From Monoplex corrugatus (taxonomy: Eukaryota; Mollusca; Gastropoda; Littorinimorpha; Ranellidae), in contig CM060307.1 in NCBI GenBank assembly GCA_030674185.1, forward strand, positions 69,746,905-69,810,904: a stretch of DNA of 64,000 bases. Reading direction: 5' to 3'. The notes beneath the pieces were generated by a model. It was not told where the DNA came from. It saw nothing but the letters and a program-made list of their open reading frames with translations, and did no database searches. The position numbers were made by a program, and so were the translations under genes. The stretch's first letter is position 1; each line of letters begins with the position of its first letter. Below are positions 3,340-63,075 of the stretch, piece by piece.

Positions 3340-35534
<32,195 letters not shown>

Positions 35535-40442: not shown

Positions 40443-41569
40443 CATATTCATCATCATCAGGTGCCTTGCCGCATGGCGTTGGCGATTATGGACTTCCATC
40501 TGTCTCCATCTCTTGTTGCCTCAAGCATCTCTTCCACCCTCCTTGTCTTCAGCCACTCTGCAAGTCCGTCTAGTATTTTCTCCCTGGGTCTACCCGGTGC
40601 TCTCCTTCCCTCCAGCTTTCCCGTTGTGACCAGGTGTTCCAATCCCCCTTTCCTCATAAAATGGCCTATGGATATTGCCTGCCTTTTCCTAATCTTCCTT
40701 ATGAATGATCTACTTGTGTCTGCCTCCATCAAGACTGTCTCGTTTGTTTTCTTTGCTGTCCATGGAACTCTCAACATCCTTAGAAACCACATCTCGGCTG
40801 CTTCAATCTTGTTCTGGCTTTGCTTGTTGACTGTCCACGCCTTACAATCCTACAACAGTATTGGTTCTATATAGCATTCAAGAATTCTCTTCCTGATGTT
40901 AATTGATAAGCATTTGTTGGTAAAAATGCTTTCCATCTTCTTGAATGTTGTTTTGGCTTGGCCGATTCTGCTGGCTATTTCTAATGTGCATCTGCTGTCT
41001 GGTGAAATGATCAATCCCAGGTATTTAAATCTAGCAACCTGTCTCAAGGTTGTGCCGTTTGCTGTTATTTTGCATGAGGGGATTTCATGTTTTCTACTGA
41101 TCACCATACTTCAATCTTCCTGCTGTTTAGTTCCAACCCCTTACCTTTGCTTTCTATTTCGAGTATATTCACAAGGTTTGGTAGGGCCCTTTCACTTTCT
41201 GCAATTAGCACGGTGTCATCTGCATATCGAATGTTGTTTATCATTTTTCCTCCAACCTTTAATCCAGGGTCTTCCTCTAGGTTTCTCATGATGTTTTCGC
41301 TGTAGAGTGAAAACAGATCTGGTGACAAAACACAACCCTGTCTGACTCCTCTTTTGATGTTTTGGAAAGAGCTTATATCGTTTAAAAATCTCATTGCAGC
41401 TGTTTGTTCCCAATACATATTTCTGATTATTCATAGATCTTTTCCATCAATATTGAGTCTTTCTAGTTGGTTGATCAATTCTTCATGTCTTACCCGATCG
41501 AAAGCCTTGGTATAGTCAACAAAGCATAAATATAAATCCTTGTTCACCTCGATTGAACTGTCTATGATA
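40443..41569 (-). mobile_element. RTE-like LINE, 3' part (split by the Tigger element)
   Basis: Minus-strand non-LTR retrotransposon. The 3' end at 40443 has an ATG/ATC-type microsatellite tail just after the stop (AMRQGT, TGA), as in RTE elements. It is cut at 41569 by the TA-flanked Tigger element and continues at 48254-48546. Confidence 0.85.
40457..41418 (-). pseudogene. RTE-like reverse transcriptase, broken by frameshifts
   Basis: Three minus-strand frames join in order. 41418-41101 has KRGVRQGCVLSPDLFSLYSE (motif B) and NNIRYADDTVLIAESERA (catalytic YADD). 41107-40850 has ARFKYLGLIISPD and a CYIEPILL segment. 40792-40457 has MWFLRMLRVPWTAKKTNETV, IGHFMRKGGLEHLV and GRPREKILDGLAEW. This layout is that of RTE/BovB-type ORF2 C-termini. 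At least two frameshifts make this copy dead. Confidence 0.88.
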
Positions 41570-42046
41570 CAGTGAAACCCGGCTATATTGAAGTGGGCTA
41601 TATTGAAATCCCGGCTATATAGAAGAATTTTTCAGGTCCCGGCCGAAGCTCTACTTTTTTTTTGTTAAAAAATGTTGGCTACATTGAAGTCGGCTATATT
41701 GAAATCCCGGCTATATTGAACCAAAAATTCAGCCCACGGGACGTTTTTACCTGGCTATATTAAATGTTTGCTCCAAAGATTTTTTTAAACTTTTTATTTT
41801 TAAGAACAATGACTGCGCGGGCGCCGAATGATATGACACGCCTCTGACAGCGCAATCAGTTGAGGAAGGGGAGAGGCCAGATCAGCATCAACTTTCGAGT
41901 CAGGAGGTCTCTGATAACAATTACGGTCTAACAATGCCGCGGGCCTCTGACAACCACGCCATGTAGTCTTGTGGTGCGTAGATCTCCCCGACTTAATTTC
42001 TCTTGTTCATGCGAGTACAGTAGTTTCCCTTTGTACACTAGCAAAA

Positions 42047-43014
42047 ATGGCTGCAAAACAAAAAAGGGTGAGTCTGACAATTAAAAGAAAAATCGAGCTT
42101 ATTCAGAAGCTGGAAACTGGCTGCAAAAAAAGAAAGGAAGTAGCTGAGGAATATGGAATTTCGGCAGGTTGTGTGATCAAGATTATGAAAGAAAAAGAAA
42201 CATTGAAAAGTCTTTACTACAGCGGAGAAATAGATCCAAAAATCCAGAGACCACATAGAGTAGCTCGACAGGAAGAAATAGAGCATGCACTTCTTCAGTG
42301 GTTCAAAGGTGCCAGGAGTAATGCCATTCCTATAAGTGGGCCTGTGCTGAAGACGAATGCTGAAGAGTTTGCAAGAAAACTCGGCTTAAATGACTGGGAG
42401 TGCACGAACGGTTGGCTTAGCCGATTCAACAAGCGACACAACATCAACTGCCGAAAAGTGTGCGGCGAACGTGAAAGCGTAGATGAAGTGTCCACAGATG
42501 CATGGGTTAGCGAAGTGCTGACCCCAACTCTTCAAAAGTATAAGGAGAAGGACATCTTCAACATGGATGAATGCGCTCTATTCTTCCGTATGCTGCCTGA
42601 TAGAACCTTTGAGTTCAAATCTAAGAAGTGCCATGGAGGAAAGCAGTCTAAGGAAAGAGTAACTGTGAGTCTTTGCTGTAACATGGACGGGTCAGAGAAA
42701 CAGTCGCTTTTGGTCATCGGGAAGTTTGCCAAACCCCGGTGCTTCAAAGGCATTGAGTTGCCACTTCGCTATACATCGAACAAGAAAGCCTGGATGACAT
42801 CCGACCTATTCGAGAAGTGGTTGCGCGATTTTGACCGGTCCATGGACAGTGCAAACCGAAAGGTCTTACTTGTGATCGACAATTGCACTGCTCATGTCAA
42901 AGTTCAAGGCCTCCTGGCAACAGAAGTGCTTTTCCTCCCACCAAATGCCACATCCAAACTCCAACCTTTGTACTGTGGTGTGATCAAGAATTTGAAATTC
43001 TTCTACAGGTGAGT

Positions 43015-43081
<67 letters not shown>

Positions 43082-43293
43082 CTCTCTCTCTCTCTTTCCC
43101 TCTCTCACATACACACTCTCTCTCTCTCTCTCTCCACACACACACACACACACACACACTCACAATCACTCACAATCACTCACACATACACACTCTCACA
43201 CACATTTGAAATTCTTCTACAGGTGAGTACGTGTGTGTGTGTGTGTGCTCTTTCTCTCTCTTTCCCTCTCTCACGTACACACACATACACACA

Positions 43294-43353
<60 letters not shown>

Positions 43354-44794
43354 ATCACTCACACACTAGCACACAATTAAGGTTTGAAATTGGTATTTTT
43401 TCAGAACACGGATGCTCTCCAGGCTCATTCTTCACGTTGATTCAGGCCTGCCCTTGGGTGAGTTCAGCGTCACCCTCCTCGATGCCGTCAGGAACCTGAA
43501 GCACGCATGGGACAATGTCAGACCATCCACAGTCCGAAACTGTTTCCGGAAAGCAGGATTTAATCGAAGTGACCTTGATGAAGGAGAAGCCTGCACTGAG
43601 ATGCCATGCGACGTGGGAGCTGACATTGAGGCTGCTGACATGGAGCCGCTCCTGTTACGACTCTACAAGGAGCTGGATGTGTCCCTGGAAGAGTTTTGTG
43701 ACGTTGACAATGATGTTGCTACATGCGCGGTTCCTTCAACAGAAGACATCTTGTCCTCACTTAGCTCTACCAGAGGTGACACCGATGAGACCATCAACGA
43801 CAAAAACGACTCTGATGGGGATGACTGTGGGGAGCAACCTCCGTCTATCTCAAAGCTGGAGGCTTTGTCTGCTCTTTCAACTATTGAGCTGTATCTGTTG
43901 CAAACGGGAGCAAATGAAGAGATCAGAAGAGGACTTCAAAAATTCAGCGGTCAATTCGAACATTTGCTTCTAACAACTTCCACAATACAAAGCAGAATCA
44001 CAGATTTCTTTTCGTCACCATCAAAGCCTGAACAGGCAAGTCATTCATTCACTTGGAGCCATTCCACTTCTCCCCCCTCAACCAGTAAGGACACGCCTCG
44101 TCCGTCAACCAGTAAGGACACGCCTCGTCCGTCAGCCAGTAAGGACACGCCTCGTCCATCAACCAGCAAGGACATGCCTCGTCCGTCAACCAGTAAGGAC
44201 ACGCCTCGTCCGTCAACCAGTAAGGACACGCCTCGTCCATCAACCAGTAAGGGTTCCACCAGGCATACAACAGATGACTCTTTCGTGTTTTTTGACAATC
44301 TTGCAACACTGATCAAAGATGCATCATCCTACGAGGAACTTGAGAACATTGTTGCTGCAGAAACGCTTTCCTTGTTCGCACAAACGCCCATCACATACAA
44401 ACCATACCTGCCAGAAAAACCAAACGTGGACTATGTGTCCCTCGAGCTGTATCCTGATGATGCTTCGCAGTGTCTTCCAGTGCAGGTGCGTGGTGACGGA
44501 AATTGTCTGCCGCGGTGCGGGTCTCTCCTAGCATATGGAGATGAAGATCATCACACTGAGATGCGGGTCCGTATCATTTTTGAGATGGTTCAAAATTCAG
44601 ACCTGTATCTTTCTGATGATTTCCTTGCATCGGGGACGGATCTTCAGAATTTGGTGAAGACTTACATCTCATACTCAGACCAGACATTTTCCATCAACGT
44701 GACGGAAGAAGACATGAAAAACCTTTTTCAGAATGACGTGATGAACTGCCGATGCCCAGGAGCCTACATGAGTATGTGGGGAATCCATGGTTGA
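42047..44794 (+). CDS. Tigger-type transposase fused to OTU-like protease domain (2 exons)
   Basis: Exon 1 is 42047-43008 and exon 2 is 43405-44794; the join AG|A restores Arg and gives FFYRTRMLSRLILHVDSGLP, the normal Tigger continuation. Residues ~5-55 form a CENP-B-type helix-turn-helix (LTIKRKIELIQKLETG), ~70-135 the second HTH, and ~165-320 a DDE domain: FNMDE with D174, LLVIDNCTAH with D278. At residue 309 SKLQPLYCGVI has Tyr where Tigger enzymes have Asp (a DD30D position). A PIP-box QSRITDFF lies at 516-523, nine-residue PSTSKDTPR repeats at ~546-605, and an OTU-like domain with GDGNC (D685, C688) follows. One lost T (~44793) truncates the protein at 783 residues; copy 2 shows the rest. 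It probably binds its TIRs in the nucleus, but cutting is doubtful. Confidence 0.88.
43009..43404 (+). other. intron in the transposase gene, made of microsatellites and a tandem duplication
   Basis: Donor CTACAG|GTGAGT and acceptor TTTTTTCAG|AACACG. The 396 bases are GT, CT and CA tracts. The exon end TTTGAAATTCTTCTACAG plus GTGAGTACGTGTG recurs at 43204-43236, so the unit (exon end + donor + GT + CT + CA) is tandemly duplicated. The second copy forms an AG|GT site that could act as a recursive splice point. Confidence 0.75.
44083..44251 (+). repeat. 27-bp coding minisatellite in the fusion linker
   Basis: About six to seven copies of a 27-base unit (CAGTAAGGACACGCCTCGTC core) encode PSTSKDTPR repeats. 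The same array with the same copy number is in copy 2 at 46517-46685. Confidence 0.9.
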
Positions 44795-45524
44795 GTAGTG
44801 TACTGGGTGTGCCTGTCCAGTCTGTGTACCCACAGTATGGAGGTTTCATGTTAGAAAGGACCTCCATATGAGTTGTGCAGCCTCGCATCTGTCGACAAAG
44901 TGAGATCAACACTTCCCAGGAAAGCTTGCCGACTATCATGTGGACGTCCTGTCTGGGGAAAGACAAACCTGCGTCAACCTGGGTTCAACCACTTTGTGGT
45001 TTGTGTACCAACTTTTGAACCGCGTGTCTTGTCAGTGCTGATCCGAAACTTTCGGAAAGGGTTATCAACATAGCGTAATGGCATGATGGCCTTCTTGTGT
45101 TGTGTGTGTGTGTGTGTAGGGGTGGGTGGGTGGGTATTTTTTTCGTATTCGACATTGAACTTTTGAACAGCAGTTATGTAATTTTTTCTTGAAATGTTTA
45201 ATGTGTCTCGTATTCAGAGAGATCAGTTCAGTTTTCGCTTTTCAAGGATGCTACATTGCCTATGGAACAACTCCGTCGACGCGATACCACAGGTACAAAG
45301 GTCCAGACGATGCTGTCTTTTTTTTTTGCTTTCAGATACACCGGACATATGTCTTCTTTTTCATTAAAGTTTTAATCAAATGTTAATTTGGCGTCGGTCT
45401 GATAGTTTTGAATGGCTCTGTGTGTTTGTGTGTGTAAGGGAGGGGGGGGGCGTGCGTGTGGTGCCGTGGGGTGTAGTGTGTTGTTGTGTTGTGAGTGTGT
45501 GTCCGTGTGTGTGTGTGTTTTTGG

Positions 45525-45560
<36 letters not shown>

Positions 45561-45723
45561 CAGAAAAAAAAGCAAGGAGGGGTCGAAGAACAACAGCCAA
45601 CAGGTGAAAGATTAATGGGAATATATTCACATCAAACGCAATGTGTGGACACGGAAATAAGAAACCTATAGTGAAAAAAAAAGTTCGGTTAAAATTGAAT
45701 TTTTTGAAGGGGAAAAAGGAGGG
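44795..45723 (+). other. decayed end of OTU frame and 3' UTR of Tigger copy 1
   Basis: 44795-45017 still matches the C-terminal OTU region of copy 2 (ending HFVVCVP) but with several one-base indels. After 45073 come GT tracts (45100-45118, 45480-45560) and a stretch without coding. The right subterminal repeats begin at 45724. Confidence 0.7.
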
Positions 45724-45819
45724 GAATTCAATATAACCGAGAATTGGCTATATTGAAGTTCCGGCTATATTGAAGGTCTTCCCGGTCCCGTGCCACTTCA
45801 ATATAGCCGGGTTTCACTG

Positions 45820-46350
45820 TAGGAGTAGGAGCCTCAATAAAAATACAGGAAAATATGGAGATCCGAGATGACTGGTTGCTTTTGTAAAAGTTAGATCAAG
45901 TTATGCTTGAGGAAGCATCATCAAAAACAACATAATTGTGATCAAGTTGGTAATTGTAAGAATGGGTGTCTAGTTACTCATAGGTATTTTAATATGCAGT
46001 AAAACAGAAATATGCACCACAGAAGTTACAGACAAGCATCATTGAAGCCTTCATCTTGATGGACAATAGACACTTTAGTGTAGTAAAGAGCCTCGAGCTC
46101 ATCTTTGTACCGGAACATGTATTAAAAAGGTCTGCATTTGAAAATAGAAAGATATGGGCAGAGCATCTGTTAAAAAGAATAATAGAGAGCATGGCTGGCA
46201 CCAGTGTAATTCCCATGTCACCTAAAACTGGGGCCTGACATGAAGCAGAGGTGTACACATGACAACGAAAAGTGAAACATCTGACCTTTCAAAAGCACTT
46301 TTCACAATATCAAATTTATTTGAAATCCACACAGCATGGATGAGAAAATG
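45820..46350 (+). repeat. duplicated flanking block S' (copy of 49253-49738)
   Basis: Starts at the TA right after Tigger copy 1 with GGAGTAGGAGCCTCAATAAA and matches 49253-49738 throughout, with small indels mostly in short homopolymers. The right junction to Tigger copy 2 has 5-bp microhomology AAATG; the left junction shares TAG. Confidence 0.88.
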
Positions 46351-47952
46351 AAGAGATCAGAAGAGGACTTCAAAAATTCAGCGGTCAATTCGAACATTTG
46401 CTTCTAACAACTTCCACAATACAAAGCAGAATCACAGATTTCTTTTCGTCACCATCAAAGCCTGAACAGGCAAGTCATTCATTCACTTGGAGCCATTCCA
46501 CTTCTCCCCCCTCAACCAGTAAGGACACGCCTCGTCCGTCAACCAGTAAGGACACGCCTCGTCCGTCAGCCAGTAAGGACACGCCTCGTCCATCAACCAG
46601 CAAGGACATGCCTCGTCCGTCAACCAGTAAGGACACGCCTCGTCCGTCAACCAGTAAGGACACGCCTCGTCCATCAACCAGTAAGGGTTCCACCAGGCAT
46701 ACAACAGATGACTCTTTCGTGTTTTTTGACAATCTTGCAACACTGATCAAAGATGCATCATCCTACGAGGAACTTGAGAACATTGTTGCTGCAGAAACGC
46801 TTTCCTTGTTCGCACAAACGCCCATCACATACAAACCATACCTGCCAGAAAAACCAAACGTGGACTATGTGTCCCTCGAGCTGTATCCTGATGATGCTTC
46901 GCAGTGTCTTCCAGTGCAGGTGCGTGGTGACGGAAATTGTCTGCCGCGGTGCGGGTCTCTCCTAGCATATGGAGATGAAGATCATCACACTGAGATGCGG
47001 GTCCGTATCATTTTTGAGATGGTTCAAAATTCAGACCTGTATCTTTCTGATGATTTCCTTGCATCGGGGACGGATCTTCAGAATTTGGTGAAGACTTACA
47101 TCTCATACTCAGACCAGACATTTTCCATCAACGTGACGGAAGAAGACATGAAAAACCTTTTTCAGAATGACGTGATGAACTGCCGATGCCCAGGAGCCTA
47201 CATGAGTATGTGGGGAATCCATGGTTTGAGTAGTGTACTGGGTGTGCCTGTCCAGTCTGTGTACCCACAGTATGGAGGTTTCAATGTTAGAAAGGACCTC
47301 CATAGAGTTGTGCAGCCTCGCATCTGTCGACAAAGTGAGATCAACACTTCCCAGGAAAGCTTGCCGACTATCATGTGGACGTCCTGTCTGGGGAAAGACA
47401 AACCTGCGTCAACCTGGGTTCCCAACCACTTTGTGGTTTGTGTACCATACTTTTGAACCGCGTGTCTGTCAGTGCTGATCCGAAACTTTCGGAAAGGGTT
47501 ATCAACATAGCTTAATGGCATGATGGCCTTCTTGTGTGTGTGTGTGTGTGTGTAGGGGTGGGTGGGTGGGGTATTTTTTCCGTATTCGACATTGAACTTT
47601 TGAACAGCAGTTATGTAATTTTTTCTTGAAATGTTTAATGTGTCTCGTATTCAGAGAGATTCAGTTCAGTTTTCGCTTTTCAAGGATGCTACATTGCCTA
47701 TGGAACACTCCGTCGACGCAATACCACAGGTACAAAGGTCCAGACGATGCTGTCTTTTTTTGCTTTCAGATACACCGGACATATGTCTTCTTTTTCATTA
47801 AAGTTTTAATCAAATGCTTAATTTGGCGTCGGTCTGATAGTGTGAATGGCTCTGTGTGTTTGTGTGTGTAAGGGAGGGGGGGGGGGGCGTGCGTGTGTGT
47901 CCGTGTGTGTCCGTGTGTGTGTGTGTGTGTGTGAGTGTGTGTCCGTGTGTGT

Positions 47953-48001
<49 letters not shown>

Positions 48002-48251
48002 AAAAAAAGCAAGGAGGCTCGAAGAACAACAGCCAACAGGTGAAAGATTAATGGGAATATATCTCACATCAAACGCAATGTGTGGACACGGAAATAAGAA
48101 CCTATAGTGAAAAAAAAGTTCGGTTATATTGAATTTCTGAAGGAACAAGGAGGGAAATTCAATATAACCGAGAATTGGCTATATTGAAGTTCCGGCTATA
48201 TTGAAGGTCTTCCCGGGTCCCGTGCCACTTCAATATAGCCGGGTTTCACTG
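46346..48251 (+). mobile_element. Tigger-OTU element, 5'-truncated second copy
   Basis: Nearly identical to 43912-45819 of copy 1 (about 1.9 kb), including the PIP box, linker repeats, OTU domain, 3' UTR and right terminus ending GGGTTTCACTG at 48251. It lacks the left end and the transposase core. After TA at 48252 the interrupted RTE-like LINE resumes (GTTCTTATGATGTATATGG). Confidence 0.92.
46352..47456 (+). pseudogene. C-terminal fusion fragment: PIP box, linker and complete OTU-like domain
   Basis: The open frame enters from the truncated side and runs to a stop at 47454-47456. It gives the intact C-terminus missing from copy 1: VSLELYPDDASQCLPVQV, then RGDGNCLPRCGSLLAYGDED (catalytic Asp and Cys region), HTEMRVRIIFEM, SVLGVPVQSVYPQYGG, and the likely catalytic His in WVPNHFVVCVPYF. 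There is no start codon or promoter of its own, so it would be silent unless spliced to another exon. Confidence 0.82.
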
Positions 48252-48253
48252 TA

Positions 48254-48546
48254 GTTCTTATGATGTATATGGCATTGATAGTTCTTTTCCCTTCCACAAA
48301 TCCACACTGTTGATCTGGCTCTGCTATTTCTCTTTTGATTCTATTCCTTGTCCTCATCATGAATATTCTTAATATGATCTTGGTTACATGACTCATCAAA
48401 CTGATTATGTGATGGAGTTCGCATTCTATAGCCCCTGTCTTCTTTGGAAGTGCAATGAAAATTATATTTGATTTTGACATATCTTTGGGGATTTTTCCAG
48501 TGTCGTAAATTTTATTTAGGAGGACTGTTATTTTATGGCGAAGCAA
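48254..48546 (-). mobile_element. RTE-like LINE, upstream part after the Tigger insertion
   Basis: Continues the minus-strand LINE of 40443-41569. It reads KITVLLNKIYDTGKIPKDMS, then ALPKKTGAIECELHHIISLM and CGFVEGKRTINAIYIIRT, the fingers/palm start of an RTE-like reverse transcriptase. It is 5'-truncated at about 48546. Confidence 0.88.
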
Positions 48547-49252: not shown

Positions 49253-49738
49253 TAGGAGTAGGAGCCTCAATAAAAATACAGGAAATATGGATCGAGATGA
49301 CTGGGTTGTTTTGTAAAGTTTGAGCAAGTTTATGCTTGAGGAAGCATCATCAAAAACAACAGAATTGTGATCAAGTTGGTAATTGTAAGAATGGGTGGCT
49401 TAGTTACTCAGAGGTATTTAATATGCAGTAAAACAGAATAGGCACCACAGAAGTTATCAGACAAGCATCAGTGAAGCCTTCTCTGATGGACAATAGACAC
49501 TTTAGTGGAAAGAGCCTCGATCATTTGTACCGGTACTGCATTTGAAAATAGAAATGATAGGGCAGAGCACTGTTATAAGAATAATAGAGAGCATGGCTGC
49601 ACCAGTGTAATGCACAGCACCTAAAACTGGGCCTGACATGAACAGAGGTGTACACATGACAAAGAAAATGAACATCTGACCTTTCAAGCACATGCACATA
49701 TCATGTGTATTGAATCACTCAGCATGGATGAGAAAATG
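49253..49738 (+). repeat. flanking block S (source or sister of 45820-46350)
   Basis: Begins TAGGAGTAGGAGCCTCAATA and ends AGCATGGATGAGAAAATG. No gene is recognised in it. Its copy at 45820 is ~45 bases longer owing to scattered small indels. Confidence 0.85.
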
Positions 49739-50301: not shown

Positions 50302-51185
50302 CTACCTAATCGAATATATGCAGTCTGCCCAGTGGCGATCCAGACTGGCCTTGAAGCTGTCGAGAGATGGTGCGGTGACCACTTTTTCTGGGAGCGCGTT
50401 CCAGGGATTCACCACTCGATAGGAGAAAAAGTGCTGGCGCAGTGAACTATCGCAACTCCTTTTCTTGAGCTTTAGATTGTGCCCACGGATCTGCTTAGCA
50501 CTGTTTTCCAGTACAAGAGGACTCTTCGTGTTGCACAACCCGTGTGTGAACTTGTAGGTTTCAATCATGTCACCCCTGTCCCTTCGGTACTCCATGCTGG
50601 GGATCTTCATTCTGATAAGTCGCTCTTCATAGGGACAGTCAACCAGACCAGGAACCAACTTTGTTGCTCGCCTGAGAACGCCCTCGATGATGTCCTTATC
50701 TTTCTGATATCTTGGTGACCACACATTGTTGGCAAACTCCAGGTGAGGGCATATCAATGCAATGAACAGCTGTCGCATGGTCTCGGTGTCAAGGTACTGG
50801 TAAGAGCGCCTGATCAGCCCTAGAATTCTGTGTCTCAACATGGTGGCTGAATTAGAGTTCCTGATCTACCAATACTCCCAGATCTTTCTCTCCCTTTGAT
50901 GACTCCAGCATCACTCTCTCTTCGCTGTTGTGTAGTCTCATGCTATATTCTGCCTTGGGGTTACTGTGTCCGAGGTGTAGAACCTGACATTTTGTCGCAT
51001 TGAACCGCAGCTGCCAACAATCTGCCCAGTCAACAAGGTTATCTAACTCCTATCCCTCTTGTTTTGCTCCTCTACTATGTCAAACACTTTTGTATTGTCT
51101 GCATACATCTGACAGATGCAGTTCACCACCTCTGGCATATCATTGATGAACACAATAAACAGCATTAGCCCCAAGACGTTTATAC
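50302..51185 (-). pseudogene. CR1-like LINE reverse transcriptase remnant
   Basis: Minus strand. 51185-51040 reads MLFIVFINDMPEVV and MYADNTKVF, where the catalytic YADD is changed to YADN. After a frameshift come DWADCWQLRFNATKCQVLHLG and EKDLGVLVDQEL. From 50841 a 179-codon frame (MLRHRILGLIRRSYQYLDTE, LICPHLEFANNVWSPRY, RRATKLVPGL, VVNPWNALPEKVV) ends at 50302. This is palm-thumb order for a CR1-type ORF2. It is dead: frameshift, altered catalytic Asp and no 5' half. Confidence 0.88.

Positions 51186-54561: not shown

Positions 54562-63075
<8,514 letters not shown>

What the first reader, a model, noticed from the sequence alone, without database searches (positions are those of the whole stretch)
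42047..47456. A Tigger transposon that encodes a transposase joined to an OTU-type protease domain resembling vertnin
Seen: after a normal Tigger transposase (CENP-B-type HTH, DDE domain, C-terminal tail) the same open frame continues through a nine-residue-repeat linker into a ~270-residue domain with GDGNC and a late NHF histidine, the OTU cysteine-protease signature; two copies share it. Known: OTU enzymes cleave ubiquitin chains. Inference: the order of blocks (VSLELYPDDA, GDGNCLPRCGSLLAYGDE, SVYPQYGG, RICR, MW, HFV-VP) recalls the N-terminal half of vertebrate vertnin, where, as I remember it, the catalytic Cys is lost. A selfish element carrying a deubiquitinase could stabilise its transposase or PCNA-linked partners, and could be the source from which vertnin-like host genes arose.
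Basis: partly seen in the sequence, partly recalled or inferred. Interest (0 to 1): 0.88.

Follow-up and report, generated by a model that had tools for sequence, protein, structure and literature searches.

The report
Jumping gene fused to deubiquitinase-like domain
A family of Tigger-type jumping genes in this animal makes its transposase in one piece with a domain shaped like a ubiquitin-cutting enzyme, and the same kind of domain sits in several unrelated jumping-gene families and, in a dead form, in the vertebrate gene vertnin.

The parts
41570..45819 (+). Tigger/pogo element, copy 1 (TA at 41568-41569 and 45820-45821)
   Evidence: perfect 27-nt TIRs and TA; same layout in 15 of 20 loci
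41570..41596 (+). left TIR CAGTGAAACCCGGCTATATTGAAGTGG
45793..45819 (-). right TIR of copy 1
42047..43008 (+). exon 1: CENP-B_N, HTH_Tnp_Tc5 and most of DDE_1; third catalytic Asp replaced by Tyr in this copy only
43009..43404 (+). GT-AG intron full of simple repeats
   Evidence: sequence; frame joins; the L. saxatilis protein P0091 reads straight across
43405..44266 (+). exon 2: end of the DDE_1 domain, tail and linker
43988..44011 (+). PIP box QSRITDFF
   Evidence: fits Qxx[I/L/M]xxF[F/Y] of PMC5371812
44075..44260 (+). 27-nt repeats coding PSTSKDTPR-type units
   Evidence: 5 to 40 units in other copies
44267..45020 (+). OTU domain of copy 1, frame broken after ~44780
46342..48251 (+). copy 2: 3' half of the element only
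   Evidence: 97.1% identical to 43908-45822
46701..47456 (+). intact OTU-type domain of copy 2
   Evidence: predicted structure
45822..46341 (.). filler, indel-rich near-copy of 49254-49737

Best explanation
It is a recently mobile Tigger/pogo DNA transposon family whose transposase gene gained, through a repeat-rich linker, a C-terminal OTU cysteine-protease domain. Shown by sequence and prediction: the fusion, its spread, the OTU fold, the kept Cys and His. Inferred: the protein binds the element ends by its CENP-B/HTH part, cuts and joins by its DDE part, and removes ubiquitin or a ubiquitin-like modifier from itself or from host proteins near it, which protects the transposition machinery from ubiquitin-dependent removal or eases repair and chromatin steps. 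The domain belongs to an OTU subfamily shared by unrelated animal transposons; vertnin is a host member of that subfamily that has lost the Cys.
For: Fifteen of 20 fetched loci have TIRs, TA, transposase and OTU, at sites with different flanks. P0091 (Littorina saxatilis) has DDE_1 at 1.2e-43 and the OTU in one protein with all three Asp. OTU fold: pLDDT 93.1, pTM 0.92; VCPIP1 12.4, OTUD3 12.0, TRABID 11.8, A20 11.7, Cezanne 11.6 (Z); profile to OTUD1 4.4e-8 and OTUD7B 9.3e-8. All 143 non-vertnin hits of 167 that cover both sites keep Cys and His. Tigger copies from three other records are as conserved in the OTU (92-96%) as in the transposase tail (93-95%). The same OTU subfamily in psq-pogo, hAT, MULE and integrase-fold proteins. 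Helitron deubiquitinases of another class are active in vitro (PMC9741609, passages). Vertnin: hhalign E 9.3e-35 over 240 columns.
Against: No activity data. Four insertions share one 4-base OTU deletion, so the OTU is dispensable in cis or supplied in trans. None of 15 loci tested for both has exon 1 and OTU in frame. Shared polymorphisms are too few for a selection test (OTU 0 replacement to 3 silent; exon 1 5 to 0). The window domain itself hits no Pfam model, and 5 of 20 scanned relatives pass the Pfam OTU cut-off. Hits were gathered by shared exact words, which favours kept motifs.
Confidence: 0.6

Rival explanations
1. The OTU is a passenger: gained by chance exchange with another transposon and carried along without benefit to this element.
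For: Four copies at four sites share an OTU frameshift; many copies are broken in the OTU (9 of 20 in frame).
Against: Cys and His kept in 143 of 143 covering hits over several transposase types; OTU as conserved as the transposase tail between records; independent-looking recurrence in other families.
Confidence: 0.22
2. The domain binds ubiquitin or acts on the host (silencing, damage or immune signalling) rather than protecting the transposase itself.
For: The same domain serves transposons with quite different transposases, and an OTU-broken sublineage still spread, as expected if the effect works in trans.
Against: Fusion to the transposase suggests action where the transposase is; no direct data either way.
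Confidence: 0.15
3. Local accident or assembly artefact in this window.
For: The window's second copy and the stretch 44780-46341 look unpolished or mis-assembled.
Against: Fifteen full copies elsewhere; P0089, P0090 and P0091 in other records.
Confidence: 0.01

Closest known systems
Ginger1 DNA transposons (PMC2836005, passages)
   Same: DDE-type transposase with a C-terminal OTU domain; introns in the transposase gene
   Different: Gypsy-integrase-type transposase and CCGG/CCGT target sites, not DDE_1/CENP-B and TA; whether the OTU subfamily is the same was not compared
Tigger/pogo transposons (PMC9219625, PMC7386202, passages)
   Same: TA duplication, TIRs of ~20-30 nt, CENP-B_N / HTH_Tnp_Tc5 / DDE_1, 30 residues between the second and third Asp (published DD29-36D), PIP box
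   Different: 859-residue joined protein against a published range of 300-685 aa (molluscs 532-575); extra OTU domain and repeat linker
Helitron/Helentron deubiquitinases, VTD and OTU (PMC9741609, passages)
   Same: transposon-borne deubiquitinase-type domain, with inactive relatives in host genes
   Different: rolling-circle elements; the tested enzymes are of the VTD class, and that paper says transposon OTUs were untested
Vertnin (PMC10318531, passages)
   Same: same OTU subfamily over the whole domain
   Different: Cys lost, OTU at the N-terminus followed by HTH-like repeats, no DDE transposase

Membership tests
Tigger/pogo transposon | TIRs with TA target duplication | tested here: met
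   15 of 20 loci
Tigger/pogo transposon | CENP-B_N, HTH_Tnp_Tc5 and DDE_1 domains | tested here: met
Tigger/pogo transposon | DD29-36D catalytic triad | tested here: met
   30 residues between the last two; Asp in 15 of 16 copies, Tyr in the window's own
OTU cysteine protease | OTU fold | tested here: met
   predicted structure; profile
OTU cysteine protease | catalytic Cys and His | tested here: met
   Cys 20 of 20 and His 19 of 20 copies; 143 of 143 covering relatives
OTU cysteine protease | Pfam OTU (PF02338) cut-off | tested here: inconclusive
   window domain no hit; 5 of 20 scanned relatives pass
OTU cysteine protease | cleaves ubiquitin chains | not testable with these tools
   needs the protein
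Vertnin | vertnin-type OTU domain | tested here: met
   hhalign probability 99.9, E 9.3e-35
Vertnin | OTU first, then a C-terminal half with HTH-like repeats | tested here: not met
   the Tigger protein ends with the OTU; vertnin order
Vertnin | Cys replaced | tested here: not met
   Cys kept here; 0 of 105 covering vertnin rows have Cys
Ginger1 transposon | Gypsy-type integrase core | tested here: not met
   DDE_1/CENP-B instead

The most novel reading that the evidence does not exclude
One OTU deubiquitinase subfamily has become a module that DNA transposons of unrelated superfamilies (Tigger, psq-pogo, hAT, MULE, an unnamed integrase-fold family) repeatedly take from one another because removing ubiquitin helps them jump or evade the host; vertnin, a gene tied to vertebra number, is a host-captured member whose protease was switched off.
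Probability: 0.45. Interest if true: 0.85.

Novelty: new variant of a known kind. Interest (0 to 1): 0.68.

Why it matters
It adds Tigger to the short list of DNA transposons joined to a deubiquitinase-type domain and shows one OTU subfamily recurring over several transposase types with its catalytic residues kept. That makes the older suggestion that the ubiquitin pathway takes part in transposition testable in a single-protein cut-and-paste element: mutate one Cys and count jumps. It also gives vertnin a set of close relatives, many of them joined to transposases, and so a testable origin.

Full report
What is there. The window holds a Tigger/pogo element at 41570-45819 with 27-nt perfect TIRs and TA on both sides. 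It lies in a reverse-transcriptase element on the other strand: joining 41569 to 48254 restores that element's frame over the site (IYIIRT|IIDSSIEVNKD), so the whole stretch to 48251 sits at one TA. Exon 1 carries CENP-B_N, HTH_Tnp_Tc5 and DDE_1. A GT-AG intron of simple repeats separates it from exon 2, which finishes the transposase and carries a PIP box (consensus from PMC5371812, passages), a nine-residue-repeat linker and the OTU domain. The joined protein is 859 residues.

The second copy. 46342-48251 repeats 43908-45822 at 97.1% and has no transposase. The two differ by one substitution over the first ~870 nt, then mainly by single-base indels; the filler 45822-46341 is an indel-rich near-copy of 49254-49737. 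I read this as an unpolished or mis-assembled stretch. The frameshifts in copy 1's OTU may therefore be sequence errors; this was not settled.

The fusion elsewhere. The own-genome OTU search (3.02 Gb, 7,621 contigs, organism not named) was answered once: 437 candidates, 150 scored, 151 matches, the list not complete. Thirteen listed rows, the window among them, are at least 98% identical over at least 235 of 251 residues; more than 100 listed rows lie at 29-49%. I fetched 20 loci with near-identical matches. Fifteen have both TIRs, TA outside each, and transposase and OTU sequence inside; their flanks differ and they span about 4.1-5.1 kb. The other five lack one or both TIRs in the fetched stretch; L009 and L011 hold masked bases, and masking in L015, L018 and L021 was not printed. 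Loci were chosen by their OTU, so they cannot tell how many TIR copies lack it. In other records P0089, P0090 and P0091 keep the same tail-linker-OTU order; P0091 (Littorina saxatilis, 730 aa) also has DDE_1 at 1.2e-43. That the host is a mollusc is inferred from this.

State of the copies. All three Asp are present in 15 of 16 exon 1 copies; the window alone has Tyr at the third. Exon 1 is in frame in 7 of 16 copies and the OTU in 9 of 20 (window copy 2 and 19 loci); none of the 15 loci tested for both has both in frame. Cys is kept in 20 of 20 and His in 19 of 20, counted column by column, broken frames included. Four copies (L023-L026) share one 4-base OTU deletion at four sites: that sublineage spread after losing the end of its OTU, helped in trans or because the OTU is not required. 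The linker has 5 to 40 repeat units.

The OTU domain. By itself it hits no Pfam model and the PDB only at E 0.089. A profile of 49 sequences finds OTUD1 at 4.4e-8 and OTUD7B at 9.3e-8; 5 of 20 relatives scanned pass the Pfam OTU cut-off. The predicted structure has pLDDT 93.1 and pTM 0.92; Foldseek's best hit is Cezanne at 2.1e-5, and VIA-align gives VCPIP1 12.4, OTUD3 12.0, TRABID 11.8, A20 11.7, Cezanne 11.6. Of 167 hits of two searches, 165 are not vertnin; the 143 of these that cover both sites all have Cys and His, with the bias that hits were gathered by shared exact words.

Other transposons. Flanks of the hits cluster into psq-pogo (P0144, P0145: DDE_1 and HTH_psq), hAT (P0162 solid; P0092/P0100 weak), MULE (P0165) and a large family C1. 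A model of C1 member P0111 ends in an OTU and has before it a core like retroviral integrases, with invariant D355 and D389 and near-invariant D270 in 36 sequences. P0100 comes from a transcript set, the only hint of expression. The window's genome itself holds hAT-like and C1 fusions (L029-L032). The window OTU groups with hAT-like OTUs and two L. saxatilis C1 OTUs (98/81), and less well with the psq-pogo OTUs (p-AU 0.047). This suggests exchange between transposon families; it does not prove the direction.

Vertnin. Profile comparison joins both families over 240 columns (probability 99.9, E 9.3e-35, 27% identity). None of 105 vertnin rows with a letter at the Cys column has Cys; some of those letters may be misaligned. 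Vertnin finds no OTU in the PDB at E up to 10, while the window OTU scores 99 bits against a vertnin profile, so these OTUs are closer kin of vertnin than the solved OTUs are. PMC10318531 (passages) already lists vertnin as an inactive OTU homologue; its main text does not contain the words transposon or transposase. Vertnin's branch is long and the tree unrooted: domestication from a transposon is plausible, not shown, and a direct pairing with the Tigger OTU is rejected.

What is known. C-terminal OTU on Ginger1 and OTU in Helitrons are published (PMC2836005, passages). PMC9741609 (passages) shows active VTD deubiquitinases in Helitrons and says transposon OTUs were untested. Three pogo/Tigger papers (PMC7325037, PMC9219625, PMC7386202) contain neither OTU nor protease in their main text (term search). 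Paper searches for Tigger or pogo with OTU and related terms, and for vertnin with OTU or transposon (listings), gave no report of this fusion or of a transposon origin of vertnin. Subscription journals, Repbase and preprints were not searched.

Mechanism. Shown: fusion, spread, predicted fold, kept residues, recurrence. Inferred: deubiquitination by the transposase protein. Local protection of the transposase or its partners seems to me likeliest; the OTU-broken sublineage fits an effect that also works in trans. The PIP box is a Tigger trait, not shared by the other OTU-transposases, so a PCNA-specific role is not favoured.

Noticed in passing
window 45822-46341 against 49254-49737: Filler between the two Tigger pieces is an indel-rich near-copy of a stretch about 1 kb downstream of the element, starting at TA; probable assembly fault or a trace of ectopic repair.
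   Followed up: partly
L023, L024, L025, L026 (OTU nt 342-345): Four Tigger insertions at different sites share one 4-base deletion that truncates the OTU.
   Followed up: yes
L009-L028, linker: The 27-nt coding repeat between transposase and OTU varies from 5 to 40 units between copies: a coding minisatellite.
   Followed up: partly
L030, L031, L032; proteins such as P0102, P0111, P0117: Large transposase-like family without a Pfam transposase match (DFAEN / FSDGC / HGKG..D motifs, integrase-like core predicted) ending in the same OTU subfamily and, in some, a further C-terminal domain.
   Followed up: partly
L029:364-2169: A hAT-like OTU protein of the same genome ends in QDIRDFFAKKAKQ, which resembles a PIP box but does not fit its consensus.
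   Followed up: no
proteins P0096, P0097, P0098: The same OTU subfamily in one protein with a B-box zinc finger (two of them scallop), possible further host capture.
   Followed up: no
window 8504-9625 (-), 50302-50841 (-), 59191-60171 (+), 60420-60986 (-): Several reverse-transcriptase-like open frames: the window is rich in retroelement pieces (by eye, no family search).
   Followed up: no
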